In this document: one piece after another, positions 8,895-33,193 of the stretch | How the letters are laid out: each line of letters opens with the position of its first letter | Numbering within the stretch: the stretch's first letter is position 1 | Assembly: GCA_025355175.1 (NCBI GenBank) | Contig: JANYAF010000142.1 | Location: 1 to 37,829, forward strand | From: Deltaproteobacteria bacterium | GTDB taxonomy: Bacteria; Desulfobacterota; Syntrophia; Syntrophales; Smithellaceae | DNA: 37,829 bases | Direction: 5' to 3' | Notes under the pieces: generated by a model | Told to the model about the DNA's origin: nothing | Seen by the model: only the letters and a program-made list of their open reading frames with translations | The model's database searches: none | Position numbers and translations under genes: made by a program

Positions 8895-9905
8895 ATGATT
8901 ATTGTTATGAAAAGACACGCAACGGAGAAACAGATTGAAGATGTCGTCCAATGGATCGAGTCGGTGGGCTACAAGGCTCATCCGTCCAGTGGTGTGGAGC
9001 GTACCATCATCGGAGCGGTTGGCGACAACCGCGATAAAGCCGTGCTGAAATATGCGGAATCGCTGCCGGGTGTGGAGAAAACCATGCCGATTCTGAAGCC
9101 CTACAAACTGGCCAGCCGCGAATCTCACGAAGGTGATACCGTGATTAACGTCGGTTCCATCCAGATCGGCGGTCCGGAGTTTGTGGTGATAGCCGGCCCC
9201 TGCGCCATTGAGAGCGAGGAGCAATTACTGGAGAGCGCCTACATCGTTAAAAAAGGCGGCGGACAAATTTTAAGGGGCGGCGCCTTCAAACCGCGCACGT
9301 CGCCTTACAGCTTCCAGGGTATGGAAGAGGAAGGCCTGAAAGTTCTGGATTCCGTGAGCAAGAAAACCAATTTACCGACGGTGACCGAAGTGGTCGATCC
9401 GGCGGATGTGGACTTGGTGGAATCTTATGCCGACATGCTGCAAATCGGCGCGCGCAATGTGCAGAATTTCGCCCTGCTGAAAAAAGTTGGTCATGCGCGC
9501 AAGCCGGTGCTGCTCAAACGCGGGATGATGACGACGATTGAAGAGTTGCTCATGTCGGCGGAATACATTCTTTCGTCCGGCAATCCCAACGTCATTCTTT
9601 GTGAGCGCGGCATCCGCACTTTTGAAACCGCCACCCGCAATACGCTGGATATCAGCGCCGTGCCTGTGCTCAAAAGCCTGACACATCTGCCGGTGGTCGT
9701 CGATCCCAGTCACGCGGCCGGTAACTGGAAGTATGTTATTCCGCTTTCGCGCGCGGCTGTTGCCGTGGGAGCGGACGGTATTATTGTGGAGGTGCATCCC
9801 GAACCGGAAAAGGCGGTTTCCGACGGCGCACAGTCTCTGAAACCGGAAAAATTCTATCAGCTGATGGATGATGTGCGGGCGCTCTCCAAAGCGATACGCA
9901 AATAA
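8895..9905 (+). CDS. aroF: 3-deoxy-7-phosphoheptulonate (DAHP) synthase, type I-beta with N-terminal regulatory domain
   Basis: First enzyme of the shikimate pathway: phosphoenolpyruvate plus erythrose 4-phosphate to DAHP, cytosolic and metal dependent. The 336 residues align end to end with the Thermotoga maritima enzyme as I remember it. Residues 1-65 are the ferredoxin-like regulatory domain that binds Tyr/Phe in that enzyme ([18 protein letters not shown]). The barrel follows, with [20 protein letters not shown] and CERGIRTFE. The metal ligands C103, H273, E299 and D310 are one position shifted from Thermotoga C102, H272, E298 and D309. The gene is first in the operon, 14 bases after terminator 2, with AAGGGG as ribosome site. 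Expression is therefore controlled by attenuation and activity probably by allostery. Confidence 0.97.
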
Positions 9906-9920
9906 AACGATGGAGCGGAT

Positions 9921-11015
9921 ATGCGATCATTAAAAGTCAATCTCGATAAGAAAACGTTGTCATCTTATGAAATCAGTATCGGCAAGGGCATTCTGGACCG
10001 GATGATCCTGCTGATTGCGAAGAATAACAAGGCGGCGCGCTATGTCATCATCACCGACAGCCACGTCAACAGGCTCTATGGGCAGGCATTCCTCACGGCG
10101 TTTGCAGAGGCGGGTTTGAATGCATCCATTCTTGAAATTCCCGCAGGCGAGTCTTCCAAAAATATTTCGACGGTCATGGATATAGCCGGGAAACTCTTAG
10201 CTGCTGGCGCCGATCGGGGAACGGTGCTTATTGCGCTGGGCGGCGGGGTGGTGGGTGATCTGACGGGCTTTATCGCATCGATTTATATGCGCTCGGTTCC
10301 CTATATTCAGGTACCGACCACGCTTGTCGGTCAGGTGGACAGCAGTATTGGCGGGAAAACCGCCGTGGATCTGCCTCAGGGAAAGAATTTACTGGGGACG
10401 TTTTACCAGCCGCGCGCGGTATTCACGGATTTGAATTTTCTGGATACACTGCCTGAAAATGAATTTAATAACGGTCTGGCCGAGATCATCAAATATGGCA
10501 TCATCGAAGATGAAAAAATGTTCAAGTTCCTTGAAGAGAATATGGATGCCGTTAAAAACAGAGATTCTGGTCACTTGCTGAAAATCATCGAAACCTGTTG
10601 CCGCATTAAAAAATCGATTGTGGAGATCGATGAGCGTGAGCAGGGCCTGCGCAGGATTTTGAATTTCGGTCATACGCTGGGGCACGCTCTGGAAGCCGTT
10701 TCGGACTACACGTTGTCGCATGGAGAAGGCGTGGCGTTGGGCATGATTGCCGCAGCGCGGCTGTCGGTGAAAATGCATTATCTTTCGGAAGATGAATCGG
10801 CCCGTTTGGAAAAAGTCATCGCTGGGGCGGGTCTGCCGGTAAAGATTCCGGCGTCCTTTATTTCCGACGCGGTGATCACCCGTTTAAAAATGGACAAGAA
10901 AAAAAAGGACGACGTGATTCATTTTGTCCTGATCAAAAAAATAGGCATGCCTTTTGTCAACAGCAGTGTCAGTGAAAAACTGATCGGCGATGTTCTGGAG
11001 GAAATGAAAGCATGA
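9921..11015 (+). CDS. aroB: 3-dehydroquinate synthase
   Basis: Second shikimate step, converting DAHP to 3-dehydroquinate with NAD and a divalent metal. The 364 residues have the usual length and motifs: IPAGESSKN, the glycine-rich GGGVVGDLTGFIAS, the PTTLVGQVDSSIGGKT loop, the NGLAEIIKYG metal-site region and NFGHTLGHALEA with zinc-binding histidines, then HGEGVALGM. It starts 15 bases after aroF. Its end overlaps the pheA start by 4 bases (ATGA), which indicates translational coupling. Confidence 0.97.
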   Translation: MRSLKVNLDKKTLSSYEISIGKGILDRMILLIAKNNKAARYVIITDSHVNRLYGQAFLTAFAEAGLNASILEIPAGESSKNISTVMDIAGKLLAAGADRGTVLIALGGGVVGDLTGFIASIYMRSVPYIQVPTTLVGQVDSSIGGKTAVDLPQGKNLLGTFYQPRAVFTDLNFLDTLPENEFNNGLAEIIKYGIIEDEKMFKFLEENMDAVKNRDSGHLLKIIETCCRIKKSIVEIDEREQGLRRILNFGHTLGHALEAVSDYTLSHGEGVALGMIAAARLSVKMHYLSEDESARLEKVIAGAGLPVKIPASFISDAVITRLKMDKKKKDDVIHFVLIKKIGMPFVNSSVSEKLIGDVLEEMKA

Positions 11016-12091
11016 AGCTCTCTCTGGATGTGTTAAGAGAAGACATGAGAAAAAAAGACCGGGAGATTATCCGGTTGCTTAATGAGCGTTCGCAGATCTC
11101 CGTTCAGATCGGCAAGGTGAAGGGGCAGACCGGCCTTGAGGTTTATAATCCCGCTCAGGAAGCAAGAGTGTTCAATTATTTGCAGGAACTCAATGACGGG
11201 CCATTGTCGGGCCGCCAGGTAACGGCGATTTTCCGGGAAATCATTTCCGCGTCGCGCGATCTGCAAAAGCCCATGAACATAGCGTATCTGGGACCGGAGG
11301 CCTCTTTCAGCCATCAGGCTGCGCGCCTGCATTTCGGCACGTCCAGCCGTTTCTGGCCGCAGCAAGGGATCGCGCGCGTTTTCGACGAAGTGGAAAAGGG
11401 CGCCGTGGAATGGGGCGTCGTGCCCGTGGAAAATTCATTGGAAGGGTCGGTGAATGTGACGCTGGATCGGCTGGTTTTAACGCCCCTGAAAATTCAGGCT
11501 GAGATGTGCCTGCGCATCAGCCAGTGCCTGATCTCGCAGGCTAAAAGCATGAAAGGCATCAAAAATGTTTATTCGCACCCGCAGGGGCTGGCGCAGTGCC
11601 AGGCTTGGCTCAGAGCCCATTTGCCCAATGCCGTGTTGGGTGAGATGGAAAGCACGGCGGCAGCCGCGCAGATGGTGCGGGGAAAAAAGACAGCTGCGGC
11701 TATCGGCAGCGCGCTGGCTGCAGACACTTATGGATTAAATAGGCTCGCGGAGAGCATTGAGGACAATCCCTCCAACACGACGCGCTTTCTGGTTGTCGGC
11801 CGGGGTGAAGGGACATCCACGGGCGAGGATAAAACATCGATTATTTTTGCCACGCCGAATTTCCCGGGATCGCTGCATCGGGCGCTGGCGTCCTTCGCAA
11901 AACGAAAGATCAATCTGGCCAAGATCGAGTCGCATCCGGTCAAGGAACGAATGTGGGAATACCTTTTCTTTGTGGATATGATCGGCCATATGAACGACAA
12001 AGCCGTTAAAAACTGCATCAAGGCATTAAAAGATAAGACGGTTTATTTGAAAATTCTAGGCTCGTATCCCCAGGCCAAGGACGGACTATGA
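11012..12091 (+). CDS. pheA: Bifunctional chorismate mutase / prephenate dehydratase (P-protein)
   Basis: Takes chorismate through prephenate to phenylpyruvate, the committed Phe branch. Three domains are visible in 359 residues: an AroQ-type all-helical chorismate mutase (1-88, DREIIRLLNERSQISVQIGKVKG), prephenate dehydratase (about 92-270, from AYLGPEASFSHQAA to NTTRFLVVGRG with the catalytic Thr-Arg-Phe), and an ACT domain (about 275-355). The ACT domain keeps near-canonical Phe-binding motifs (PGSLHRAL, and ESHP in place of the usual ESRP), so feedback inhibition by Phe is likely. It overlaps both neighbours by 4 bases. Its position in the middle of the trunk genes makes one transcript carry trunk and branch enzymes together. 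Confidence 0.96.
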   Translation: MKLSLDVLREDMRKKDREIIRLLNERSQISVQIGKVKGQTGLEVYNPAQEARVFNYLQELNDGPLSGRQVTAIFREIISASRDLQKPMNIAYLGPEASFSHQAARLHFGTSSRFWPQQGIARVFDEVEKGAVEWGVVPVENSLEGSVNVTLDRLVLTPLKIQAEMCLRISQCLISQAKSMKGIKNVYSHPQGLAQCQAWLRAHLPNAVLGEMESTAAAAQMVRGKKTAAAIGSALAADTYGLNRLAESIEDNPSNTTRFLVVGRGEGTSTGEDKTSIIFATPNFPGSLHRALASFAKRKINLAKIESHPVKERMWEYLFFVDMIGHMNDKAVKNCIKALKDKTVYLKILGSYPQAKDGL

Positions 12092-13656
12092 TTTGCATAC
12101 CCATCACGGATGTGACGCATCAGGAAGCGCTGAGATCGGTTGAAAGAAGCGCCATGGCGGCTGATTTAATCGAGTTGCGCATGGATTTGATTGCGGATGG
12201 CGATTTGGATCAATTGATTGCCGCGGCCCGTCGCGTATCCGGGCGCATCAAAATTATTGTCACCTGCCGCAGGAAAGAAGAAGCCCTTTTGCCGCCTCCG
12301 CTCGATCAAGCGGTCCGGAAAAAAGGGATGACCAAAACGTCCAAGATGCGTTTACTCAAACAGGCGATTGAGCTTGGCGTGGAATTCATTGATATTGAAC
12401 TGGCCGAAGGAGACAGGGCCATTAAGCAGCTTCAATCTTTTTGCCGCCAACAAAAAAGCTCCACACGGATCATCGTTTCCTGGCATGACATTTCCAAAAC
12501 ACCGTCGCTTGGAACATTAAAAGAAATATTTCAGGCCTGCGCGCAAACCGGCGCTGATATTGTAAAGATAGTTCCTTATGCCCGGACCGCGGCGGACAAC
12601 TTGAAAGTGCCTGGCCTGATCGCCTACGCCAAAGCGCAGGATCGTAAAATTATTGCGATGTGTATGGGCGATCTGGGGCAAATCAGCCGGGCCATGGCGC
12701 TGGTTTGGGGAAGTTATCTGGGATTTGCCGTATTGCCGGGCGGCAAAAAATCAGCGCCCGGCCAGTTGACGCTCAACACGATGAGGGAATTCCAGCATCT
12801 GTTGCCAGGTCATCAACGCTCAATCCAATCAGGGCTTTTACCACCGGACACATTGAACTTTGTTCTCTTGGGGAATCCTGTCCGGCAGAGTCTCTCTCCG
12901 CTCATGCATAACAAGGCTCTGGAGGCGATGCAGATTGACGGACATTACAGCGCATTTTGCGTGAGTGATTTAGCCCAAGCGATGACCGGAATCCGGGGCA
13001 TGAATATTCGCGGCGCGTCCGTCACGATTCCGTTTAAAACGGCGGTGATGGACTATCTCGACGAGATTGACGCGGATGCCGTTGCTCTGGGCGCCGTCAA
13101 TACGATCGTGAGTGAGAGGGGACGGCTTGCCGGCTACAACACGGATTGGCTGGGATTGATGCAGGCGTTGGAAGATAAAATACCCGTCGCGGGGGAAACT
13201 TTTGTCATCATAGGCGCAGGCGGCGCGGCGCGTGCGGCGGCTTACGGCATCAAAAAAGAAGGCGGCCGGCCCATTATTGTCAACCGGACCCGGGACAAGG
13301 GGTGGGCGCTTGCGGCATGGCTTGATTGTCCGTTTTATCCGCTTTCGGCCATCGGCAAAATTCAAGCCCATGGTCTGATCAATGCCACGTCCGTCGGCAT
13401 GTATCCGCGGATTCATCAATCACCGGTTACCGCGGCGACACTGGCCAATTATCAGGTTGTGGTGGATGTGATTTACAATCCTTTGAAGACCAGGCTGCTT
13501 CGGGATGCTGAGGCGCAAGGACTCAAGATTCTTTCCGGATTGGAGATGTTTGTGCGCCAGGGCGCCGGGCAATTAAAATTATGGACGGGAAAGGACGCGC
13601 CTTTGGCGCTGATGAGAAAGACCGTTCGGGAAGGGTTGGAAACGCTTGAACCCTGA
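12088..13656 (+). CDS. aroDE: Fused 3-dehydroquinate dehydratase (type I) and shikimate dehydrogenase
   Basis: One 522-residue chain carries two consecutive steps: 3-dehydroquinate to 3-dehydroshikimate to shikimate. Residues 1-225 are type I AroD, with the Schiff-base lysine K160 (IVKIVPY) and the catalytic histidine H133 (SWHDISKTP). Residues 250-522 are AroE: the shikimate site SLSPLMHN (near 268), the catalytic lysine K317 in PFK, NTD at 351-353, the NADP fold GAGGAARA from 376, and NRT. This arrangement is the rule in plants and is also known in Chlamydia; most bacteria have separate genes. The fusion would couple the enzymes and prevent loss of dehydroshikimate. The frame is continuous through the linker at about 226-250. 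Confidence 0.95.
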   Translation: MICIPITDVTHQEALRSVERSAMAADLIELRMDLIADGDLDQLIAAARRVSGRIKIIVTCRRKEEALLPPPLDQAVRKKGMTKTSKMRLLKQAIELGVEFIDIELAEGDRAIKQLQSFCRQQKSSTRIIVSWHDISKTPSLGTLKEIFQACAQTGADIVKIVPYARTAADNLKVPGLIAYAKAQDRKIIAMCMGDLGQISRAMALVWGSYLGFAVLPGGKKSAPGQLTLNTMREFQHLLPGHQRSIQSGLLPPDTLNFVLLGNPVRQSLSPLMHNKALEAMQIDGHYSAFCVSDLAQAMTGIRGMNIRGASVTIPFKTAVMDYLDEIDADAVALGAVNTIVSERGRLAGYNTDWLGLMQALEDKIPVAGETFVIIGAGGAARAAAYGIKKEGGRPIIVNRTRDKGWALAAWLDCPFYPLSAIGKIQAHGLINATSVGMYPRIHQSPVTAATLANYQVVVDVIYNPLKTRLLRDAEAQGLKILSGLEMFVRQGAGQLKLWTGKDAPLALMRKTVREGLETLEP

Positions 13657-14902
13657 AATAGACATGCAAGACAATGTTGCAGCCGTTTACGTTCCCGGTT
13701 CGAAAAGTTTAACGCAAAGGGCGTTAATTGCCGCCGCGCTGGCGCAGGGACCGTCGTTGATCCGGCATGCGCTCGTGGCCGAAGACACCGGGCATTTGAT
13801 GGCCGGGTTGCAAGAACTGGGCGCCCGCATTGAGCCGGTTGCCGAAGGTTTTGCCGTCGTCGGCACCGGCGGAGTCATTACCAATAAATGCCATAAAATA
13901 TTTCTGGGAAATAACGGCACGGCGCTGCGGTTTCTCACGGCGCTGGTCTGTCTGGGACGAGGACGTTATGTGTTAACCGGCGAGGAACGCCTGTGCGAGA
14001 GGCCGGTCGGGCCCTTGGTTTCCACGCTTCAGGAGATGGGGGTTGCGATATCCTGCCGCAATAACTGTCCGCCGGTGGAGGTGACGGCCAACGGCCTCAA
14101 AGGCGGCCGGATCACTCTGACCGATATTGAAAGCTCCCAGTATGTATCCGCGCTGCTTTTATGCGGACCTTATACCGCCAAGGGCATTGAGTTGACTCTG
14201 GAAGGAAATATCGTTTCCACGCCGTATATTGATTTGACGATCGGCGTGATGAGTGATTTCGGCGCGAATATCATTCGCACAGGTAACCGGCACTATCTTG
14301 TTGGGACACAGCATATTTATTCCGGACGCGATTATTATGTGGAAGGGGACGCCTCCAGTGCTTCTTATTTTTTTCTGGCCGCCGCGCTCACGAAAAAACG
14401 AATCCGTGTTCATGGCGTTAAAAGAGAAAGCGTACAGGGAGATATCCGTCTGCTCACTATTCTGGAAAAACTCGGCTGCCGGATCACAGGCGGTGAGACC
14501 TGGGTGGAAGTATCCCGAAGGCAGGATCTTGCTTCGGGCGACATGATATTTGATATGGGTGATATGCCGGATATGGTCCCGACTCTCGGCGTTCTTGCCG
14601 CTTTCCGCAAAGGGCGGACAATGATCGTAAACGTTGCGCATTTAAGAATCAAGGAAAGCAATCGTCTGGCGGCGATGGCGACCGAGCTCAACCGGATCGG
14701 CATTCACGCATCCGAACTGCCGGACGGCCTGGTTATCGAGGGAGGAATCACGCGCCCTGCCGCCATCGAAACCTATAACGACCACCGGATTGCGATGAGT
14801 TTTGCCGTTGCGGGGCTGATGACGCCAGGACTTTCGATTGCTGATAAAAAGTGTGTGGATAAATCTTTCCCCGGTTTCTGGCAGGAGCTTAAAAAAATAT
14901 GA
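13646..14902 (+). CDS. aroA: 3-phosphoshikimate 1-carboxyvinyltransferase (EPSP synthase)
   Basis: Joins shikimate 3-phosphate and PEP to EPSP, the sixth shikimate step. The first possible start is TTG at 13646, overlapping aroDE by 11 bases; ATG at 13664 is an alternative. VPGSKSLTQRALIAAA holds the active-site lysine near residue 20, DMPDMVPTLGVLAAF the catalytic aspartate, and YNDHRIAMSFAVAG the C-terminal signature. At 88-96 the PEP/glyphosate loop reads GNNGTALRF, where the E. coli enzyme has GNAGTAMRP; a hydrophobic residue instead of that proline is known from class II and archaeal enzymes. Total length of 418 is normal. Confidence 0.95.
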   Translation: MNPEIDMQDNVAAVYVPGSKSLTQRALIAAALAQGPSLIRHALVAEDTGHLMAGLQELGARIEPVAEGFAVVGTGGVITNKCHKIFLGNNGTALRFLTALVCLGRGRYVLTGEERLCERPVGPLVSTLQEMGVAISCRNNCPPVEVTANGLKGGRITLTDIESSQYVSALLLCGPYTAKGIELTLEGNIVSTPYIDLTIGVMSDFGANIIRTGNRHYLVGTQHIYSGRDYYVEGDASSASYFFLAAALTKKRIRVHGVKRESVQGDIRLLTILEKLGCRITGGETWVEVSRRQDLASGDMIFDMGDMPDMVPTLGVLAAFRKGRTMIVNVAHLRIKESNRLAAMATELNRIGIHASELPDGLVIEGGITRPAAIETYNDHRIAMSFAVAGLMTPGLSIADKKCVDKSFPGFWQELKKI

Positions 14903-15468
14903 AAGTCATCATCATCGGCTATAGGGCAACCGGAAAGTCAACCGTAGGCTTGCTTCTGTCCAAAAAGCTTCAAATTCCGTTTGTGGATACCGATCAGTTG
15001 ATCGAGGATACGGCGGGCATGCCGATTAAAACATTGGTGGCCCGTCATGGTTGGGAGACATTCCGGGAAAAAGAAACAGAGGTGATTGCTTCGCTTTGCG
15101 ACGGAAATCTTTGTGTCGTGGCCACCGGTGGCGGCGCGATCCTATCCGGGGTAAACAGGGAGTTGTTGAAAAATATGGGAACCCTGATATATTTGAAAAC
15201 GCCTTTGCCTGATATTGTTGAGCGGCTGAAACAAGACGCGCAAGCCGAACAAGTCCGACCGCGATTTACATCCGGGAATCTTATGGAGGAGACGATTGCC
15301 GCATTGGAGGAGCGCATTCCCATCTATGAGTCGACTGCTGATTTTATGGTGGACACGAATGGCAAAAGTATTGCACGGGTCAGCGACGACATTTATCAGC
15401 ATTTGTTCGAAGCGGGTATTGTATCCGATATCAACGAAACGAAAAATATATTAAAAAATAAACTTTAG
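14899..15468 (+). CDS. aroK: Shikimate kinase
   Basis: Phosphorylates shikimate with ATP to shikimate 3-phosphate. The 189-residue P-loop kinase has a Walker A at residues 7-15 (GYRATGKST), the DTD shikimate-binding pair after it, FREKETEVI, and VATGGGAIL, all standard for AroK. The chain is slightly longer than the usual 170-175 residues, with a C-terminal tail after residue 175. Its ATG overlaps the aroA stop by 4 bases. Confidence 0.95.
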   Translation: MKVIIIGYRATGKSTVGLLLSKKLQIPFVDTDQLIEDTAGMPIKTLVARHGWETFREKETEVIASLCDGNLCVVATGGGAILSGVNRELLKNMGTLIYLKTPLPDIVERLKQDAQAEQVRPRFTSGNLMEETIAALEERIPIYESTADFMVDTNGKSIARVSDDIYQHLFEAGIVSDINETKNILKNKL

Positions 15469-15479
15469 CGGGAGAGTGT

Positions 15480-16547
15480 ATGGCGGGAAATACTATTGGC
15501 TGCGTGTTTTGCGTGACAACCTGGGGGGAGTCGCACGGCAACGCGACAGGCGCGGTGATCGACGGCTGCCCGGCCGGGATGGATCTGGCTGAGGCCGATA
15601 TTCAGCAGGCGTTGGACCGCCGCAAACCCTCAAAGGGGGCGGCCTCAACATCGCGCGTCGAAATAGACAGGGTGGAAATCCTGTCCGGTGTTTTTGAGGG
15701 AAAAACAACCGGCACGCCGATTGCGCTCCTTATCCGCAACATTGACGCCCGGCCGTCGAATTACGATGACCTGAAAGATGTTTTCCGCCCCGGGCACGGT
15801 GATTATACTTACTATAAAAAATATGGTGTCCGCGACTGGCGAGGGGGTGGACGTGCTTCTGGCCGGGAGACCGTCGCCCGCGTTGCCGCTGGAGCCGTCG
15901 CTCAAAAAGTGATTGCTGCCGCCGGTATGGAGGTGATCGCTTACACCAAAAGTATCGGCGGAATTGAGATCAATACCGCGAGCTTGATACCCAGTCAGGA
16001 TTTGAAAGCAAAAGTACGTCAGAGCACGCTGTATTGCCCTGATGATCAGGCTGCGGCGGCCATGGAAGAGCGGCTGGCCGCCGTCCGCAAGGAAGGCGAT
16101 ACGCTGGGCGGTGTGGTGGAGATCATCGTACGGGGGTGCCCTGCGGGTTTGGGCGAGCCGGTGTTCGATAAGATGGATGCGGATTTAGCAAAAGCCCTGA
16201 TGAGCATTGGAACGGTCAAGGCCGTGGAAACAGGCGACGGTTGCGTGGTGGCCGGGCAAAAAGGCTCCCAGGTCAACGACCCGATGGATGCCACAGATTT
16301 TAAAAAGAATTCCGCCGGAGGCATCCTGGCCGGCATTACCACCGGCCAGGATATCATTGTCCGGGTTTATTGCAAACCGATTCCGTCGATTTCACAAAAG
16401 CAGCAGACCACGGACATTCAGGGCAATCAGCGTTTCATCGAAATTCAGGGTCGTCATGATATCTGTGTCATTCCACGGATTGTGCCGGTGTGTGAAGCGA
16501 TGGTTTGTCTTGTGCTGGCCGACCACTGGCTTAGGCTAGGCAGATGA
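15480..16547 (+). CDS. aroC: Chorismate synthase
   Basis: Last trunk step, EPSP to chorismate, using reduced FMN. The 355 residues begin with MAGNTIGCVFCVTTWGESHG, the conserved N-terminal signature, followed by RRKPSKG-type and GRASGRETVARVAAGAVA motifs that line the FMN and EPSP site. GDGCVVAGQKGSQVND and GGILAGITTGQDI are in place near the C-terminus. It starts 11 bases after aroK with GGGAGAG as ribosome site, and its stop overlaps the tyrA ATG by 4 bases. Confidence 0.96.
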   Translation: MAGNTIGCVFCVTTWGESHGNATGAVIDGCPAGMDLAEADIQQALDRRKPSKGAASTSRVEIDRVEILSGVFEGKTTGTPIALLIRNIDARPSNYDDLKDVFRPGHGDYTYYKKYGVRDWRGGGRASGRETVARVAAGAVAQKVIAAAGMEVIAYTKSIGGIEINTASLIPSQDLKAKVRQSTLYCPDDQAAAAMEERLAAVRKEGDTLGGVVEIIVRGCPAGLGEPVFDKMDADLAKALMSIGTVKAVETGDGCVVAGQKGSQVNDPMDATDFKKNSAGGILAGITTGQDIIVRVYCKPIPSISQKQQTTDIQGNQRFIEIQGRHDICVIPRIVPVCEAMVCLVLADHWLRLGR

Positions 16548-17317
16548 AAAATATTACCGTAGGCATTATCGGCGGCACAAACGGCATGGGGCGCTGGCTG
16601 GCCGAACTGTTGGTTTTCGAAGGCTGTATCGTTCATGTCACCGGTAGAAAAACGGAGATGACCGCTGCGGACGTTGCTCGAATTGGTGATGTGGTTGTCG
16701 TATCCGTTCCGATTGCGGCAACAGCGGGTGTTATCGCCCAGGTCGGCCCGCTTGTGAAAAAAGGACAGGTGTTGATGGATTTGACATCATTGAAGAAAGA
16801 GCCGGTGGCGTTGATGCTGGCTCACTCCGAAGCCGAGGTGGTTGGCTGCCATCCGCTGTTCGGGCCGTCCGTCACAGAATCGGCGGGTCACAATATTGTT
16901 TTATGCCGGGGACGGGGCGACGCCTGGTATGCGTGGATTAAAAACATTTTTGAAAAAACCGGCTACCATGTTTTGGAAAGAACCCCTGCCGAGCACGACC
17001 GGATAATGACCATTGTGCAGGCCCTCAACCACCTCAATACCATCGCACTGGGCATGGCGATTGCCGAAACCGGAATCCCGCTTATGGAAGTGAATCAATT
17101 TTCCACGCCCATCTTTAAAACCAAAATGGACATTGTTAAAAAAGTATTCACCGAAAGCCCGGAGCTCTACGCCGACATTATCGCCGGAAATCGCGATAGG
17201 GACGATGTGCTTCGGACTTACGAACGGGTTGTCCTGAATATTCGCGACCTGGTTAAGGCGGGCGACGGCGCGAAGTTAAAGAGCGCCATGGAAGCCGCCG
17301 CAAAAAAATTATTCTGA
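16544..17317 (+). CDS. tyrA: Prephenate dehydrogenase
   Basis: Oxidises prephenate to 4-hydroxyphenylpyruvate, the Tyr branch. The 257-residue chain starts with a Rossmann fold (VGIIGGTNGMGRWLAELL, Gly-rich loop at 10-16), then VVVSVPIAAT, DLTSLKKEP and GCHPLFGPSV, the prephenate-binding histidine region of the TyrA family. It resembles the dehydrogenase half of E. coli TyrA rather than longer stand-alone enzymes. No chorismate mutase or ACT domain is attached, so prephenate must come from the PheA mutase. It is the last gene before the terminator at 17377. Confidence 0.93.
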   Translation: MKNITVGIIGGTNGMGRWLAELLVFEGCIVHVTGRKTEMTAADVARIGDVVVVSVPIAATAGVIAQVGPLVKKGQVLMDLTSLKKEPVALMLAHSEAEVVGCHPLFGPSVTESAGHNIVLCRGRGDAWYAWIKNIFEKTGYHVLERTPAEHDRIMTIVQALNHLNTIALGMAIAETGIPLMEVNQFSTPIFKTKMDIVKKVFTESPELYADIIAGNRDRDDVLRTYERVVLNIRDLVKAGDGAKLKSAMEAAAKKLF

Positions 17318-27495: not shown

Positions 27496-28653
27496 ATGAA
27501 CAAGAAGCCCGGCAGTCAGACAAAACTGAAAAAAGATGTTTTGGAACAAAGCCTTTGCACCGGCTGCGGGGCCTGTGTCAGTCTGTGTCCGTATCAGGTC
27601 GTTTACCATGACCGGACGGTTCAGCTCCATGACTGCGATCTGACTGACGGGAAATGCTACGCATTTTGCCCCCGGACGCCTGCCGACTACGGACAAATTC
27701 GGGAAAGTCTCTTTGATGTCAGTGAGGTAACGCCGGAAATCGGTGCGGTAAAAGGTTATTATTTATCGAGGGCTGCCGATCCTGCATTGCGTGCGAAAGC
27801 CCAGCATGGCGGCACGGTGACGGGCCTTCTGGAAGTCGCTATAGCTGAAGGCCTGATCGATTCCGCCATTGTCTCTTCACGTAACGAAGAATTGGAGCAA
27901 GAGGGCAGGCTGATTGAAGCTAAAAGTCAGTTGTGCGATTATGCGAAAAGCAAGTTTACGGTATCTCCTACAGTGGCCGCTTTCAACCGGCTGATGGGCG
28001 ACACGGTTAGAAAAGTCGGTGTTGTGGCGACGCCCTGTCAGGCGCTGGCGCTGGCAAAAATGAAGACGGCAGTAATAAGTAATGACAGTAAAATCAATCA
28101 ATTAAACCTGGTGATTGGTTTGTTTTGCGGTTGGACTCTATCGGTCGAAAGCTTTCACCGCTTGTTGCAGCAATATCAGATATCCCCTGAAGCGCTCACC
28201 GGCATGGATATTCCGGCGGGAAAAAATATTCTGGAACTTTACACGAACGAATCCGTGACGTCCGTGTCCATGGCCGAGGTGGACGCCTGTGTTCGGACGG
28301 CCTGTCACTATTGTATCGACAGTACGGCGGAGTTTGCCGATCTGTCCGTCGGCGCAGCGCGTTTCGGTGGTGACTGCGATGAGATGCGTGGCTGGAACCA
28401 GATCATTGTGCGATCGGAGCTTGGAAAACAGGTGATGGAACTGGCTGTTGACCGGGGCGCGCTGGAAATCAGGGAGGCCCCGGCGTCAGCCTTGCAGAAC
28501 CTGAAAAACGCGGCGGCGGAAAAAAAGAGAAAAGCATTAAAAAACATTATTGAGAAAAGCCGTTCGGTAAAAAATCTTTTGTATCTGAACAGCGACGATC
28601 CGGTCGTACGAAAATATTTGAGTATTGATAAGAAACGAAAAGGGAAATCATGA
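27496..28653 (+). CDS. FrhB/FdhB-family iron-sulfur flavoprotein
   Basis: A 385-residue relative of the beta subunit of coenzyme F420 hydrogenase/dehydrogenase. It begins with a ferredoxin-like motif (C21, C24, C27, C31) and a second cysteine set (C47, C54, C58). FrhB hallmarks follow: GGTVTGLLEVAIAEGLIDSAIV, VGVVATPCQALALAKMK, IGLFCGWTLSVESF and CHYCIDSTAEFADLSVGAARFGGD. FrhB proteins bind FAD and move electrons between iron-sulfur clusters and a soluble carrier. ATG at 27496 with GGGAAG upstream is preferred to TTG at 27484. The stop overlaps iorA by 4 bases, so it is probably a partner of IorAB, carrying electrons from pyruvate-type oxidation to an unknown acceptor. Whether the organism has F420 cannot be told here. 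Confidence 0.85.
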   Translation: MNKKPGSQTKLKKDVLEQSLCTGCGACVSLCPYQVVYHDRTVQLHDCDLTDGKCYAFCPRTPADYGQIRESLFDVSEVTPEIGAVKGYYLSRAADPALRAKAQHGGTVTGLLEVAIAEGLIDSAIVSSRNEELEQEGRLIEAKSQLCDYAKSKFTVSPTVAAFNRLMGDTVRKVGVVATPCQALALAKMKTAVISNDSKINQLNLVIGLFCGWTLSVESFHRLLQQYQISPEALTGMDIPAGKNILELYTNESVTSVSMAEVDACVRTACHYCIDSTAEFADLSVGAARFGGDCDEMRGWNQIIVRSELGKQVMELAVDRGALEIREAPASALQNLKNAAAEKKRKALKNIIEKSRSVKNLLYLNSDDPVVRKYLSIDKKRKGKS

Positions 28654-30590
28654 CCAAACTCTTGTCACCGGCCAAATCAAAGGTGTTATTTCTGGGCAAT
28701 GAAGCGATTGCGCGCGGTGCGCTGGAAGCAGGCGTTGCGGTGGCCACGGGCTATCCGGGGACGCCGTCATCCGAGGTGATCGAATCCCTGGCGCGTGTCG
28801 CCTCCGAACGAAACCTGTATGTGGAATGGTCGGTCAACGAAAAAGTGGCCCTCGAAGTGGCCGCCGCCGCGTCCTTTGCCGGCCTGCGTTCGATGGCTGT
28901 CATGAAACAAAACGGCGTGAATGTGGCATCGGATTTCCTTCTGCATTTGACCGCGTCGGGTACGCGTGGGGGGCTGGTGCTGGTTTCCTGCGAAGATCCG
29001 GGCGCGCTCTCCAGCGTCAATGAAGGGGAATCACGCTATTTTGCGCGGATGCTGGAAATGCCGCTTTTGGAACCGGCGGATTTTCAGGAAGCCAAAGACC
29101 TGACGAAGTGGGCGTTTGAATTATCGGAACAAATCGGCAATGTCGTGATGCTGCGATCGGTTACGCGTATGTCGCATGCGAGCGGCAATGTGATTTGTGG
29201 AAAATTGCCGATAAAAAGCGGGAAAGCTCACTTTGAATATGATGGATCGGTCATGGACTCGAGCCGCGGGCCGATGATCAGCACGCCGGTGGTGGCTAAA
29301 CATCTGCTGCATCAGAAAAAACTAAAAAATATCGAGGCGTTGTTTGAGAAAAGTCCTTTTAACCGGTATGTCGGCGCGGCGAAACCGGAGTTGCTTATGA
29401 TCACCAGCAGCGCCTGTTTCCTTTATGCCAAAGAAGCTGTCGAGATGCTGGGACTGCAAAAGCGTGTAGGGATTTTGAAACTGGGGACGACCTGGCCTCT
29501 GCCGCCTAAGCTGCTTGAAAAACACCTGCGCAAGAAGACGAAGATTCTGATTGTTGAAGAAGTGATGCCGTTTCTTGAAGAAAACGTGAAGGTTCTGGCT
29601 GCAGGTCTTGTGAACCGGATCGGCGTTAAAACATTCTTTGGTAAATACGATGAAACGCTGCCGTCCGTGGGCGAGCTCAATCCGGATATTGTCGCCGTCG
29701 CGCTGTGTCATATTTTGAAGGTAAAGCGCAAAACGCTTCCGGCTAACTATCTCAGCGACTCTCAGAAAGCAGTAGCGCTGATTCCCGCGCGCGAACAAAC
29801 GTTTTGCGCCGGGTGTCCGCACCGCGCGTCGTTCTGGAATATTCACAACGCCATCGCGCTCGACGGCCGTAAAGGTTTTGTTTGCGGAGACATCGGCTGT
29901 TATTCCATGGCAGCCCTGTCGCCCGCGACCGGCTATCACACGATGCCTACGCTCCATTCGATGGGCTCCGGTACAGGACTGGCGAGCGGCTTTGCCAAAC
30001 TGGCTCAGTTCGGCCTCGATCAACCGATTCTGACGGTTTGCGGGGATTCCACTTTTTATCATGCGGTGATTCCGGCGCTGATCAACGCGCAGCACAACCG
30101 CGCGGACATTACGTTTATTGTGCTGGACAATGCCGGTACGGCCATGACGGGATTTCAGCCACATCCGGGCCTCGCGATCAGTGCGATGAAAGAGGCGGTT
30201 CCCGCCGTGGACATAGCGGCGATTTGCTCCGCCATCGGCGCTAAAGTGGCGCTAAGCGATCCGTTTGACCTGAAGACGACCGGTAAAATTCTGACCTCGT
30301 TTCTGGCCGATAAAGGATTGCTCAAGGTGTTGATCCTGCGTCAGGCCTGCGCGCTCAGCCCCGAGAAAAAGGGAAAGAAAATATTTGACGTGAAGGTGAA
30401 CGAATTGTTGTGTCTGGGCGATGCGTGCGGCTGTAACCGCCTGTGCACGCGGATTTTCCGCTGTCCGGCGCTTACCTGGGACCGGACGACGAAGAAGGCG
30501 GTGGTCGATGAGGTTATCTGCGCCGGTTGTGGCGTGTGCGCCTCGATCTGTCCGCAGAATGCGATTGTTAAAACGGAGGCGGCACTCTGA
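28650..30590 (+). CDS. iorA: Indolepyruvate:ferredoxin oxidoreductase, alpha subunit
   Basis: Oxidises aryl 2-oxoacids (indolepyruvate, phenylpyruvate, 4-hydroxyphenylpyruvate) with CoA to aryl-acetyl-CoA, CO2 and reduced ferredoxin, or the reverse. The 646 residues show the pyrimidine-binding domain (GYPGTPSSEVIESL, EWSVNEKVALEVAAAAS, MKQNGVNVASDFL), the TPP/Mg2+ domain (FCAGCPHRASFWN, GDIGCYS near 413, GDSTFYHA near 466) and a C-terminal two-cluster ferredoxin domain (CGCNRLC, then CAGCGVCASICPQNAIV from 624). It overlaps frhB by 4 bases and is followed at once by iorB. Confidence 0.95.
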   Translation: MTKLLSPAKSKVLFLGNEAIARGALEAGVAVATGYPGTPSSEVIESLARVASERNLYVEWSVNEKVALEVAAAASFAGLRSMAVMKQNGVNVASDFLLHLTASGTRGGLVLVSCEDPGALSSVNEGESRYFARMLEMPLLEPADFQEAKDLTKWAFELSEQIGNVVMLRSVTRMSHASGNVICGKLPIKSGKAHFEYDGSVMDSSRGPMISTPVVAKHLLHQKKLKNIEALFEKSPFNRYVGAAKPELLMITSSACFLYAKEAVEMLGLQKRVGILKLGTTWPLPPKLLEKHLRKKTKILIVEEVMPFLEENVKVLAAGLVNRIGVKTFFGKYDETLPSVGELNPDIVAVALCHILKVKRKTLPANYLSDSQKAVALIPAREQTFCAGCPHRASFWNIHNAIALDGRKGFVCGDIGCYSMAALSPATGYHTMPTLHSMGSGTGLASGFAKLAQFGLDQPILTVCGDSTFYHAVIPALINAQHNRADITFIVLDNAGTAMTGFQPHPGLAISAMKEAVPAVDIAAICSAIGAKVALSDPFDLKTTGKILTSFLADKGLLKVLILRQACALSPEKKGKKIFDVKVNELLCLGDACGCNRLCTRIFRCPALTWDRTTKKAVVDEVICAGCGVCASICPQNAIVKTEAAL

Positions 30591-30591
30591 A

Positions 30592-31206
30592 ATGAAAAAG
30601 CAGCTCCTTTCAAATACAAAGAATCTGATTCTCACCGGCGTCGGCGGTCAGGGCAACGTCATGGCCTCAAGGACGCTGGCGGGCATGCTGGTGGATGCGG
30701 GCTATATCGTCACGATCGGCGAAACGTTCGGTATGTCACAGCGCGGCGGCTCAGTCATGAGTCATCTGCGTATTTCACCCGATTCGGTTAAAAGCCCGCA
30801 GATTCCCCGTGGTGGGGCGGATGTGATCGTGGCGCTTGAGCCACTTGAAGCGCTACGTGTCCTCACGGTTTACGGCAATCCGCAGGTCTGCGTGTTGTCC
30901 AATACACGACCCGTTTATCCCATCGGCGTGATCACAGGCGAGCTTTCCTATCCATCGGAAGAAAATATCCAGGTGGCGTTTCAGCGATTATCGAAAGCCT
31001 TCTGGAGCATTGATGCGACATCAGCGGCGCTTGCGCTTGGTAATCCCGTTTTGAGCAACATTGTGATGATCGGGGCACTGGCCAAAACCGGCCTTTTACC
31101 CATCGACCGCAGGATGTTTGAAAAAGAGATCAAAAAAACGCTTGCTGTGGATAAATGTGCCGTGAATTTAAAGGCATACGATGCCGGCGGCGAAATGATC
31201 AAATAA
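30592..31206 (+). CDS. iorB: Indolepyruvate:ferredoxin oxidoreductase, beta subunit
   Basis: A 204-residue gamma-type subunit of the 2-oxoacid:ferredoxin oxidoreductase family. NLILTGVGGQGNVMASRTLAGMLVDAG is its N-terminal signature, followed by GETFGMSQRGGSVMSHLRI and LEPLEALR. The frame is open from 30421, but ATG at 30592, with GGAGG at 30575-30579, gives the standard N-terminus and normal length. It begins 1 base after the iorA stop. Together with IorA it forms the alpha2beta2 enzyme. Confidence 0.95.
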   Translation: MKKQLLSNTKNLILTGVGGQGNVMASRTLAGMLVDAGYIVTIGETFGMSQRGGSVMSHLRISPDSVKSPQIPRGGADVIVALEPLEALRVLTVYGNPQVCVLSNTRPVYPIGVITGELSYPSEENIQVAFQRLSKAFWSIDATSAALALGNPVLSNIVMIGALAKTGLLPIDRRMFEKEIKKTLAVDKCAVNLKAYDAGGEMIK

Positions 31207-31270: not shown

Positions 31271-32479
31271 GTGGCGAATATTTATTCAGCGATTAAAGTG
31301 AGCAAACATGTTTACTGGGTGGGAGCCATTGACTGGTCGATCCGCGATTTCCACGATTACACCACGCCTCACGGCAGCACCTACAACGCCTACCTGGTGA
31401 TGGCGGACAAGATAACACTTATTGATACGGTCAAAGCGCCGTTTATGGATGAAATGATGGCACGGATCGCATCCGTAATTAATCCATCGAAGATTGACTA
31501 TATTGTTTCCAACCATTCCGAACAGGATCATTCCGGATGTGTTTTGGAGGTTATCGACCAGGTAAAACCGGGAAAGGTTTTTGCTTCCGTCATGGGCGTG
31601 AAAAATCTGAAAGACATTTTCCACTCCGATTACAACATTCAGCCCGTAAAAGACGGTGAAACACTCAGCCTGGGCAATATGGATTTGAAGTTTATGGAAA
31701 CCCGGATGATTCACTGGCCGGATTCCATGTTTTCGTATTTGCAAGAAGACGGTGTGCTGTTTTCGCAGGATGCTTTCGGTATGCACCTGGCGACACTGGA
31801 GCGTTTTGCCGATGAGCTGCCAGCCGATATGCTTGCATACGAAGCTGCAACTTACTATGCCAATATCGTGCTGCCTTATTCACCGGTCGTGCTTAAAGCG
31901 CTGGAAAAGGTAGCGGCAACCGGCTGGGCGATCAAAATTTTCGCGCCGGATCATGGGCCGGTCTGGAGAAAAGACCTCGGATTTATTATCGATCTTTATA
32001 AAAAGTGGGCCGAGCAGAAACCGGCCAACAAGGCGGTTGTCGTTTACGCGACGATGTGGCATTCGACGGAAATGATGGCCAGGGCGATTGCGGAATCGCT
32101 GGCGCGGGAAGGTGTTCGGGTGAAGCTTTTGTCTATGAATGATGTGCATCGCAGCGAAGTGGTTTATGAAGTGCTGGATGCGGGCGCGCTGATTGTTGGA
32201 TCGCCCACACTGAACAACAACATGCTGCCGCAGATGGCGGACGTCATGACCTATCTGAAAGGCTTGAAACCCGCTAATCTGATTGGTGCGGCTTTCGGTT
32301 CCTTCGGTTGGAGCGGCGAGTCGGTCAAGGATTTGGAGGGGATTCTCAAAGAGATGAAAGTGGATATCGTTGCCGAGACGATTTCCGTCAAGCATGTTCC
32401 GGCAAAGGACGTCCTCGAAAAATGTTCCGAACTGGGTAAGGTGATTGCAGTCGAATTGAAAAAAAGAATTTCCGGGTGA
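31271..32479 (+). CDS. Flavodiiron protein (A-type flavoprotein, FprA-like)
   Basis: A 402-residue oxygen or nitric oxide reductase of anaerobes, cytosolic. The metallo-beta-lactamase-like half carries the complete di-iron ligand set: H82, E84 and D86 (NHSEQDHSG), H148, D167 (SQDAFGMH) and H228 (DHGPVW). The flavodoxin half starts near residue 254 ([20 protein letters not shown]) and holds FMN ([20 protein letters not shown]). Electrons normally come from rubredoxin, which is the very next gene. GTG start with GAGGTGA upstream. It lacks the extra reductase domains of longer family members. Confidence 0.95.
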
Positions 32480-32507
32480 AATTTATAATTTTGCAAGGAG
32501 GATAAAA

Positions 32508-32666
32508 ATGAAGAAATATGTTTGCAGTGTGTGCGGTTATGAATATGATCCGGCCAAGGGAGATCCAGAAAGCGGCGTAGCGAAAGGCACGGAATTCAAG
32601 GATTTGCCGGAGGACTGGACCTGTCCGGTTTGCGGCGCAGACAAAAGTGAGTTTGTTCCAGCCTAA
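32508..32666 (+). CDS. Rubredoxin
   Basis: A 52-residue rubredoxin with the single iron bound by C6, C9, C39 and C42 ([12 protein letters not shown] and [13 protein letters not shown]). The length and spacing are canonical. AAGGAGG stands at 32496-32502 before the ATG. Placed between the flavodiiron protein and rubrerythrin genes, it is the natural electron donor to both. Confidence 0.97.
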
Positions 32667-32692
32667 ACCAACCATCCACAGGAGTTTGACGC

Positions 32693-33193
32693 ATGGACGA
32701 AAAAATTCGTGATGCCCTGCAGCAGGCCTATGTCGGCGAAGCCAAAGCCGTCCTGAGGCTTAAAATGTACGCCGACAAGGCGGACGCGGAAGGTTACAAA
32801 CAGATTGCGCGCCTGTTCCGCGTGATCGCGGTTTCCGAAGAGATCCACGGTATGCGAGCGCTCAGAGTGCTCAAGGAAATTAAAACAACGGAAGAAAATC
32901 TGGCCGTCAGTTTTGAATCGGAAAAGACGGTGGCAGAAATCGCCTACGACAGTTTTGTGAAAATGGCTGAGCAGGCAGGGGATAAACCGGCCCTTCTGCA
33001 TTTCAGCCAGAGTCGCGATGTGGAAGAAACGCACGCCAAGCTCTATAAACAGGCGATGAATCATTTCATGGAAGAGCGCGAAACGGTTTATCACGTTTGT
33101 AAAGTGTGCGGCTATGTGGCCGACGGCGAGCTGCCGGATGAATGTCCCGTCTGCGGCGCGAAAAAAGACCAGTTTACAACTTTCGATCAATAA
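32693..33193 (+). CDS. Rubrerythrin
   Basis: A 166-residue peroxidase of anaerobes that reduces hydrogen peroxide with rubredoxin electrons. The N-terminal four-helix di-iron domain shows the Glu/His pattern (GEAKAVLRLKMYADKA, AVSEEIHGMRALR, DVEETHAKLY). The C-terminal rubredoxin-like knuckle reads VCKVCGYVADGELPDECPVCG. ATG follows a CAGGAG ribosome site, 26 bases after rubredoxin. The module flavodiiron, rubredoxin, rubrerythrin removes both O2 and H2O2. Confidence 0.95.
   Translation: MDEKIRDALQQAYVGEAKAVLRLKMYADKADAEGYKQIARLFRVIAVSEEIHGMRALRVLKEIKTTEENLAVSFESEKTVAEIAYDSFVKMAEQAGDKPALLHFSQSRDVEETHAKLYKQAMNHFMEERETVYHVCKVCGYVADGELPDECPVCGAKKDQFTTFDQ

What the first reader, a model, noticed from the sequence alone, without database searches (positions are those of the whole stretch)
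27496..31206. FrhB-like flavoprotein built into an indolepyruvate oxidoreductase operon
frhB, iorA and iorB overlap or abut. FrhB proteins pass electrons between iron-sulfur clusters and a soluble carrier through FAD. Joined to IorAB, it would link arylpyruvate oxidation or aryl-acetyl-CoA reductive carboxylation directly to another electron carrier, perhaps by flavin-based bifurcation. This is not the usual free-ferredoxin scheme for IorAB. The substrates are the products of the aro operon in this window, which hints at interconversion of aryl acids and aromatic amino acids.
Basis: partly seen in the sequence, partly recalled or inferred. Interest (0 to 1): 0.6.

Follow-up and report, generated by a model that had tools for sequence, protein, structure and literature searches.

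The report
Keto-acid oxidoreductase with FrhB-type flavin subunit
A three-gene operon in a methane-zone bacterium pairs a keto-acid-oxidising enzyme with an iron-sulfur flavoprotein normally tied to the archaeal coenzyme F420, and because these bacteria appear not to make F420, the pairing probably sends the electrons to a different carrier than textbooks assume.

Summary
In detail: frhB-like (27496-28653), iorA (28650-30590) and iorB (30592-31206) form an overlapping operon in a Smithellaceae (Syntrophales) MAG. It is not chance. In 297 genomes of the phylum, 64 of 86 IorA of this type have FrhB directly upstream, against 0 of 64 listed ordinary IorA. The IorA form their own clade, fall below NCBI's IOR_alpha cut-off that four ordinary copies pass, and carry a Cys-Gly-Cys insert in the electron-exit domain. 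The FrhB model matches, over its whole length, the zeta subunit that makes ethane-archaeal CO dehydrogenase F420-reducing (Z 46). Yet the hosts lack F420 biosynthesis markers. Best reading: a 2-oxoacid oxidoreductase wired through a dedicated FrhB subunit to a soluble two-electron carrier other than F420, most likely NAD(P). Complex and carrier are inferred, not shown. Bifurcation has no support. The aro-operon link has none either, and the substrate is unproven; neighbours in some lineages (2-hydroxyacid dehydrogenases, LarA racemases) suggest 2-hydroxyacid-derived oxoacids. I found no published description in ten searches of open papers.

The parts
27496..28653 (+). FrhB-like iron-sulfur flavoprotein subunit, 385 aa: N-terminal ferredoxin-like domain with seven invariant Cys, then FrhB domain with four invariant Cys and the FAD loops
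   Evidence: PF04422, PF04432, Fer4; invariant C21 C24 C27 C31 C47 C54 C58 C181 C211 C270 C273 in 23 of 23 aligned rows; model pLDDT 88.5, best match 8riu_B Z 46 over 355 residues
28650..30590 (+). IorA-like catalytic subunit (thiamine diphosphate 2-oxoacid oxidoreductase alpha), 646 aa
   Evidence: TPP_enzyme_C and POR_N; IOR_alpha 568.2 bits, cut-off 650.9; start overlaps the FrhB stop
30426..30434 (+). Cys-Gly-Cys insert (IorA residues 593-595) in the C-terminal ferredoxin domain, diagnostic of the FrhB-linked subfamily
   Evidence: 50 of 50 FrhB-linked rows, 4 of 4 nested FrhB-less rows, 0 of 3 deep-branching rows, 0 of 14 ordinary rows
30592..31206 (+). IorB-like gamma-domain subunit, 204 aa
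   Evidence: PF01558; IOR_beta 153.4 bits, cut-off 205.8; found beside IorA in loci

Best explanation
FrhB, IorA and IorB are one enzyme. IorAB oxidises a 2-oxoacid with CoA on thiamine diphosphate (family knowledge); the electrons pass through the IorA clusters and its remodelled C-terminal ferredoxin domain into the N-terminal ferredoxin domain of FrhB, which sits where a free ferredoxin would dock (inferred from the Ca. Ethanoperedens CO dehydrogenase and Fwd complexes), then through the FrhB cluster to FAD, and leave as a hydride to a soluble two-electron carrier. As the hosts seem not to make F420, the carrier is most likely NAD(P)+ (my estimate 0.4, against all other acceptors together). 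Coupling to such a carrier would make the oxidation strongly downhill and nearly one-way (inference from textbook potentials). The subunit partnership and the absence of F420 markers are shown by sequence; complex formation, direction, substrate and carrier are inferred.
For: Linkage: 64 of 86 IorA of this type have FrhB directly upstream, 0 of 64 listed others; 56 of 59 genomes with this IorA have an FrhB match somewhere, 21 of 238 others. Own clade of 57 rows (50 with FrhB) apart from 14 ordinary rows. FrhB and IorA co-vary, Mantel r 0.81 over 50 loci, highest of 2000 permutations 0.18. CGC insert in the exit domain. FrhB fold equals ACDS-zeta 8riu_B over residues 5-383, Z 46, rmsd 2.3, 28% identity, and FwdI-type 8rja_E, Z 38.8, the two subunits shown to turn ferredoxin-linked enzymes to F420 (PMC11493965, passages). 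FAD loops of FrhB described in PMC3930138 (QxGG, PCQ; passages) are kept. No F420: CofE 1 of 56, CofH over cut-off 0 of 56. The same genome keeps an ordinary IOR (IOR_alpha 727.6 bits), so this one need not be the ferredoxin-linked copy. An FrhB-domain protein is encoded beside a cytoplasmic NADH-linked fumarate reductase in Pelotomaculum (PMC10308238, Discussion read).
Against: No biochemistry. No NAD(P) site was identified, and the Pelotomaculum authors thought an extra NADH-oxidising subunit might be needed. At least eleven IorAB of this clade stand without an adjacent FrhB although the contig continues (L120, L121, L122, L141-L144, L155, L156, L158, L159), so IorAB may work without it or with an FrhB from elsewhere in the genome. 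NCBI's frhB equivalog cut-off is not reached (135 of 331.5 bits). F420 absence rests on two markers in draft genomes, and uptake from methanogen partners is not excluded.
Confidence: 0.6

Rival explanations
1. FrhB is a catalytic reductase of an organic substrate, like the chlorophyll reductases BciB and HCAR: electrons from 2-oxoacid oxidation are passed to FAD and used there on a small molecule, an internal Stickland-like couple.
For: HCAR is among the structural matches (5dqr_D, Z 33.8); an frhB-annotated gene of Acaryochloris works as the 8-vinyl reductase BciB (PMC4836224, abstract and passages); explains FrhB without F420.
Against: Closest match is the carrier-reducing zeta subunit (Z 46 against 33.8); no conserved neighbour across the phylum that would supply or take such a substrate.
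Confidence: 0.15
2. F420 is used after all, made by an unrecognised route or taken up from methanogen partners.
For: The nearest structures all use F420; Smithella lives beside methanogens (established knowledge).
Against: CofE in 1 of 56 genomes (that one with an in-frame stop in a MAG with 8% contamination) and CofH over cut-off in 0 of 56; the cassette occurs in many families of the phylum.
Confidence: 0.12
3. Flavin-based bifurcation or confurcation: FrhB splits electrons between ferredoxin and a second acceptor.
For: A strongly exergonic couple would waste energy unless coupled (inference); the IorA exit domain is kept, so ferredoxin could still dock.
Against: One FAD site and no second conserved flavoprotein gene in the cassette; FrhB is not a known bifurcating family (established knowledge); the zeta precedent is a simple wire.
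Confidence: 0.1
4. FrhB is a separate enzyme that merely shares the operon.
For: At least eleven clade IorAB lack an adjacent FrhB; in two genomes FrhB follows IorB instead (L114, L115).
Against: Specific to one IorA clade, co-varying sequences, paralogous cassettes matched.
Confidence: 0.1

Closest known systems
F420-reducing CO dehydrogenase (ACDS zeta subunit, 8RIU) and Fwd complex (FwdI, 8RJA) of Ca. Ethanoperedens thermophilum
   Same: Extra FrhB-type subunit with N-terminal 2x[4Fe-4S] domain on an enzyme otherwise taken to be ferredoxin-linked; FrhB model matches zeta end to end
   Different: Different catalytic enzyme (2-oxoacid oxidoreductase); bacterial hosts without F420 markers
Indolepyruvate:ferredoxin oxidoreductase IorAB (TIGR03336, TIGR03334)
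   Same: Same domain make-up and gene order iorA-iorB
   Different: Separate clade, below equivalog cut-offs, CGC insert in the exit domain, dedicated FrhB
NADH-dependent phenylglyoxylate dehydrogenase PadEFGHI (recalled; NCBIfam NF045762, NF045764 appear)
   Same: A 2-oxoacid oxidoreductase given NAD by an extra flavoprotein subunit (recalled)
   Different: Window proteins score 23 of 700 and 45 of 300 bits; the Pad flavoprotein is of another family (recalled)
FrhB-domain protein PTH_1492 beside cytoplasmic fumarate reductase of Pelotomaculum (PMC10308238)
   Same: FrhB domain with a soluble redox enzyme in a syntrophic propionate oxidiser
   Different: Other catalytic partner; electrons flow from NADH to fumarate

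Membership tests
FrhB family (PF04422/PF04432) | Both Pfam domains over cut-off | tested here: met
   PF04432 121.9 bits against 23.3, PF04422 47.6 against 22
FrhB family (PF04422/PF04432) | FAD loop QxGG and PCQ loop with cluster Cys | tested here: met
   Q103, G105, P180, C181, Q182 invariant in 23 rows and G106 nearly so; loops from PMC3930138
F420-reducing FrhB (TIGR03289 equivalog) | Curated score cut-off | tested here: not met
   135.3 of 331.5 bits
F420-reducing FrhB (TIGR03289 equivalog) | Host makes F420 | tested here: not met
   CofE 1 of 56, CofH over cut-off 0 of 56 genomes, controls ring
Indolepyruvate:ferredoxin oxidoreductase (TIGR03336/TIGR03334 equivalogs) | Curated score cut-offs | tested here: not met
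   568.2 of 650.9 and 153.4 of 205.8. Four ordinary alpha subunits tested pass; TIGR03334 is missed by the two ordinary beta subunits tested too, so it does not discriminate
Indolepyruvate:ferredoxin oxidoreductase (TIGR03336/TIGR03334 equivalogs) | Acts on arylpyruvates | not testable with these tools
   No substrate data
2-oxoacid:acceptor oxidoreductase superfamily | POR_N, TPP_enzyme_C and POR domains | tested here: met
   All over cut-off
Zeta/FwdI-type FrhB adaptor subunit | Full-length fold with N-terminal ferredoxin domain | tested here: met
   8riu_B Z 46, 355 residues; 8rja_E Z 38.8
Zeta/FwdI-type FrhB adaptor subunit | Docks on the catalytic enzyme | not testable with these tools
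Flavin-based electron bifurcating enzyme | Two acceptors of different potential | not testable with these tools
   Needs assays; no second acceptor module conserved in the cassette

The most novel reading that the evidence does not exclude
A phylum-wide subfamily of 2-oxoacid oxidoreductases has swapped free ferredoxin for an FrhB adaptor that works without F420, which would make FrhB a general plug-in that redirects low-potential enzymes to NAD(P) or another hydride carrier in bacteria.
Probability: 0.4. Interest if true: 0.72.

Novelty: new variant of a known kind. Interest (0 to 1): 0.55.

Why it matters
Metabolic models of syntrophs and sulfate reducers usually book any IorAB as ferredoxin-reducing. 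If this subfamily reduces another carrier, the electron balance of keto-acid oxidation in these organisms changes, and so does its direction: a ferredoxin-linked IOR can also run as a carboxylase, one wired to NAD(P) hardly can. It would also extend the zeta/FwdI principle, so far described for an F420 archaeon, to bacteria without F420, and gives a concrete role to 'F420 hydrogenase beta subunit' genes in genomes where that name makes no sense.

Tried and rejected
Aro operon link: no aro gene (aroF, aroA, tyrA, pheA queries) within 10 kb of the cassette in 37 loci; the closest relatives' flanks stop short of where the window has it. NMO and thiolase neighbours: NMO at high identity only in the three nearest relatives, L022-L024, so not part of the system. 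Flavodiiron protein, rubrerythrin, MipA, holin-like gene and MutS downstream: conserved in Smithellaceae but not seen beside the cassettes of other families, so regarded as neighbours; my ORF calling was crude (long antisense ORFs displaced real genes, core lost in L094, L096, L098).

Substrate: 2-hydroxyacid dehydrogenase, Lut or LarA-type genes lie within 4.5 kb in 11 of 43 loci of this clade and 0 of 13 ordinary loci. This is post hoc, the rows are related and flanks differ, so it is a lead only. LarA homologues racemise many 2-hydroxyacids (PMC7583248, start of abstract in a listing only). Phenylpyruvate-induced IorA3B3 of Desulfococcus multivorans (PMC5109826, passages): contig G215:C1 has that chromosome's exact length, so I take it to be that genome (inference); it has three IorA hits with best E 2e-97, in the range of the ordinary type, and an FrhB away from them, so it is not evidence on this subfamily.

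Plasmids: 6 records with IorA, all under 37% identity; not followed. TIGR02155 (phenylacetate-CoA ligase) has close but sub-cut-off matches in 11 of 12 genomes tested; uninformative. Promoter and terminator scan at chance level. The 45% identity line between IorA groups was set after seeing the list; the tree supports the split. The lower IorA list was cut by the tool, so '64' counts listed rows only.
Full report
WHAT IS THERE. The window is contig C61 of a 2.9 Mb draft genome; its close relatives are Smithella, Smithellaceae and Syntrophaceae MAGs, so it is taken as a Smithellaceae bacterium. frhB (27496-28653), iorA (28650-30590) and iorB (30592-31206) overlap or abut. Pfam finds FrhB_FdhB N and C domains and an N-terminal 4Fe-4S domain in the first, the thiamine-diphosphate oxidoreductase domains in the second and the POR domain in the third. 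It is the only PF04432 match in the genome. The genome also holds an ordinary IorA at 39% identity which passes NCBI's IOR_alpha cut-off with 727.6 bits, whereas the window's copy does not, with 568.2 against 650.9.

HOW FIRM IS THE LINK. In public genomes the FrhB query brought 37 loci; in 33 iorA follows on the same strand, mostly within a few hundred bases, up to 1.8 kb in L044; three of the rest end at the contig edge and L058 holds only an FrhB fragment. In the family, 34 of 35 genomes have a match, two of them only fragments. In 297 genomes spread over the phylum, FrhB (E <= 1e-20) is in 77 and IorA (E <= 1e-60) in 231. Of the 150 IorA hits that the tool listed, 86 share 45% identity or more with the window's; 64 of these have FrhB directly upstream, none of the other 64 has. 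By genome, 56 of 59 with this IorA type have an FrhB match, against 21 of 238 without it.

Of the 22 without FrhB upstream, two have it just downstream (L114, L115) and some lie at contig edges (for example L157, L161, L163, L164). At least eleven stand alone on continuing contigs. Three of these (L141-L143) form the deepest branch of the clade and lack the Cys-Gly-Cys insert. The others keep the insert, and most of their genomes have FrhB elsewhere.

A tree of 71 IorA puts 57 rows, 50 of them with FrhB, on one side of a fully supported branch and 14 ordinary rows, none with FrhB, on the other; FrhB linkage needs five changes, against 18.3 in shuffles. Distances of FrhB and IorA correlate over 50 loci (r 0.81; highest of 2000 permutations 0.18), and in three genomes with two cassettes each FrhB is nearest to the partner of the matching IorA. 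Shared species history adds to that correlation; the paralogue comparison does not depend on it.

ANATOMY. FrhB has seven invariant Cys in the N-terminal domain and four in the FrhB domain. Seven is one short of two 4Fe-4S clusters; in Fsr a glutamate supplies a missing ligand (PMC10229431, passages), so two clusters remain plausible. The FAD-binding loops described for FrhB are kept. The model (pLDDT 88.5, pTM 0.91) matches the zeta subunit of Ca. Ethanoperedens CO dehydrogenase over 355 residues, Z 46, then FwdI-type 8rja_E, F420-dependent sulfite reductase, the chlorophyll reductase HCAR and hydrogenase FrhB. IorA keeps Cys386, 389, 417 and 567, and its C-terminal ferredoxin domain has nine invariant Cys, two of them in an insert that ordinary IorA lack.

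HOW IT PROBABLY WORKS. In Ca. Ethanoperedens the zeta subunit and FwdI were shown to turn enzymes assumed to need ferredoxin into F420-reducing ones, the N-terminal domain serving as the bridge (PMC11493965, passages). The same module beside IorAB suggests the same wiring. But 55 of 56 genomes tested lack CofE and none has CofH over the cut-off; strong sub-cut-off CofH hits are probably the related menaquinone enzymes (recalled). So a carrier other than F420 is likely, NAD(P)+ first, at about 0.4 by my estimate. From textbook potentials such a coupling would favour oxidation over reductive carboxylation; that would suit two IORs in one cell with different jobs. Bifurcation is possible in principle but nothing here points to it.

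SUBSTRATE. Arylpyruvates are suggested only by the family name, and the window's proteins lie outside the NCBI equivalogs. In 11 of 43 clade loci, against 0 of 13 ordinary ones, genes for 2-hydroxyacid oxidation or racemisation lie within 4.5 kb, for example a FAD-linked oxidase and a CCG protein directly before frhB in L093, L096 and L099 and LarA in L089. A route from 2-hydroxyacid to 2-oxoacid to acyl-CoA would fit, aryl-lactates among the candidates. In the window itself no such gene adjoins, and the aro operon (8895-17317) shows no conserved tie.

PRIOR WORK. Ten searches of the open library, five of them aimed at FrhB or F420 together with IOR (19, 23, 24, 49, 74), found no description of an FrhB-IorAB unit; subscription journals are mostly not in that library. 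I rate it a new variant of a known kind: known enzyme, known adaptor, new pairing in hosts where the adaptor's known coenzyme is missing.

Noticed in passing
window 31271-33193: Flavodiiron protein and rubrerythrin genes follow iorB and are conserved there in Smithellaceae (flavodiiron match in 25 of 37 loci); possible oxygen protection of the oxygen-sensitive enzyme, or just neighbours.
   Followed up: partly
window 12088-13656: One 522-aa protein joins type I 3-dehydroquinate dehydratase (residues 1-235) and shikimate dehydrogenase (259-517) within the aro operon.
   Followed up: no
L057, L058: IorA match split into two pieces in L057 (possible frameshift), and only a fragment of FrhB at the contig start of L058.
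   Followed up: no
L114, L115: Gene order iorA-iorB-frhB instead of frhB-iorA-iorB, followed by Lut-type genes.
   Followed up: partly
L141, L142, L143: Deep-branching relatives of this IorA clade without FrhB and without the CGC insert; in L143 followed by a GlcD/GlcF-type pair.
   Followed up: partly
L095, L145, L146, L147: FrhB-like genes without IorAB beside them, on long branches in the FrhB tree; function not looked into.
   Followed up: no
FrhB model of window 27496-28653 against 9nez_B: Weak fold similarity of the FrhB domain to chain B of the Pyrococcus furiosus SHI complex (Z 10.8, 11% identity), whose companion entry is titled NADPH-bound.
   Followed up: no
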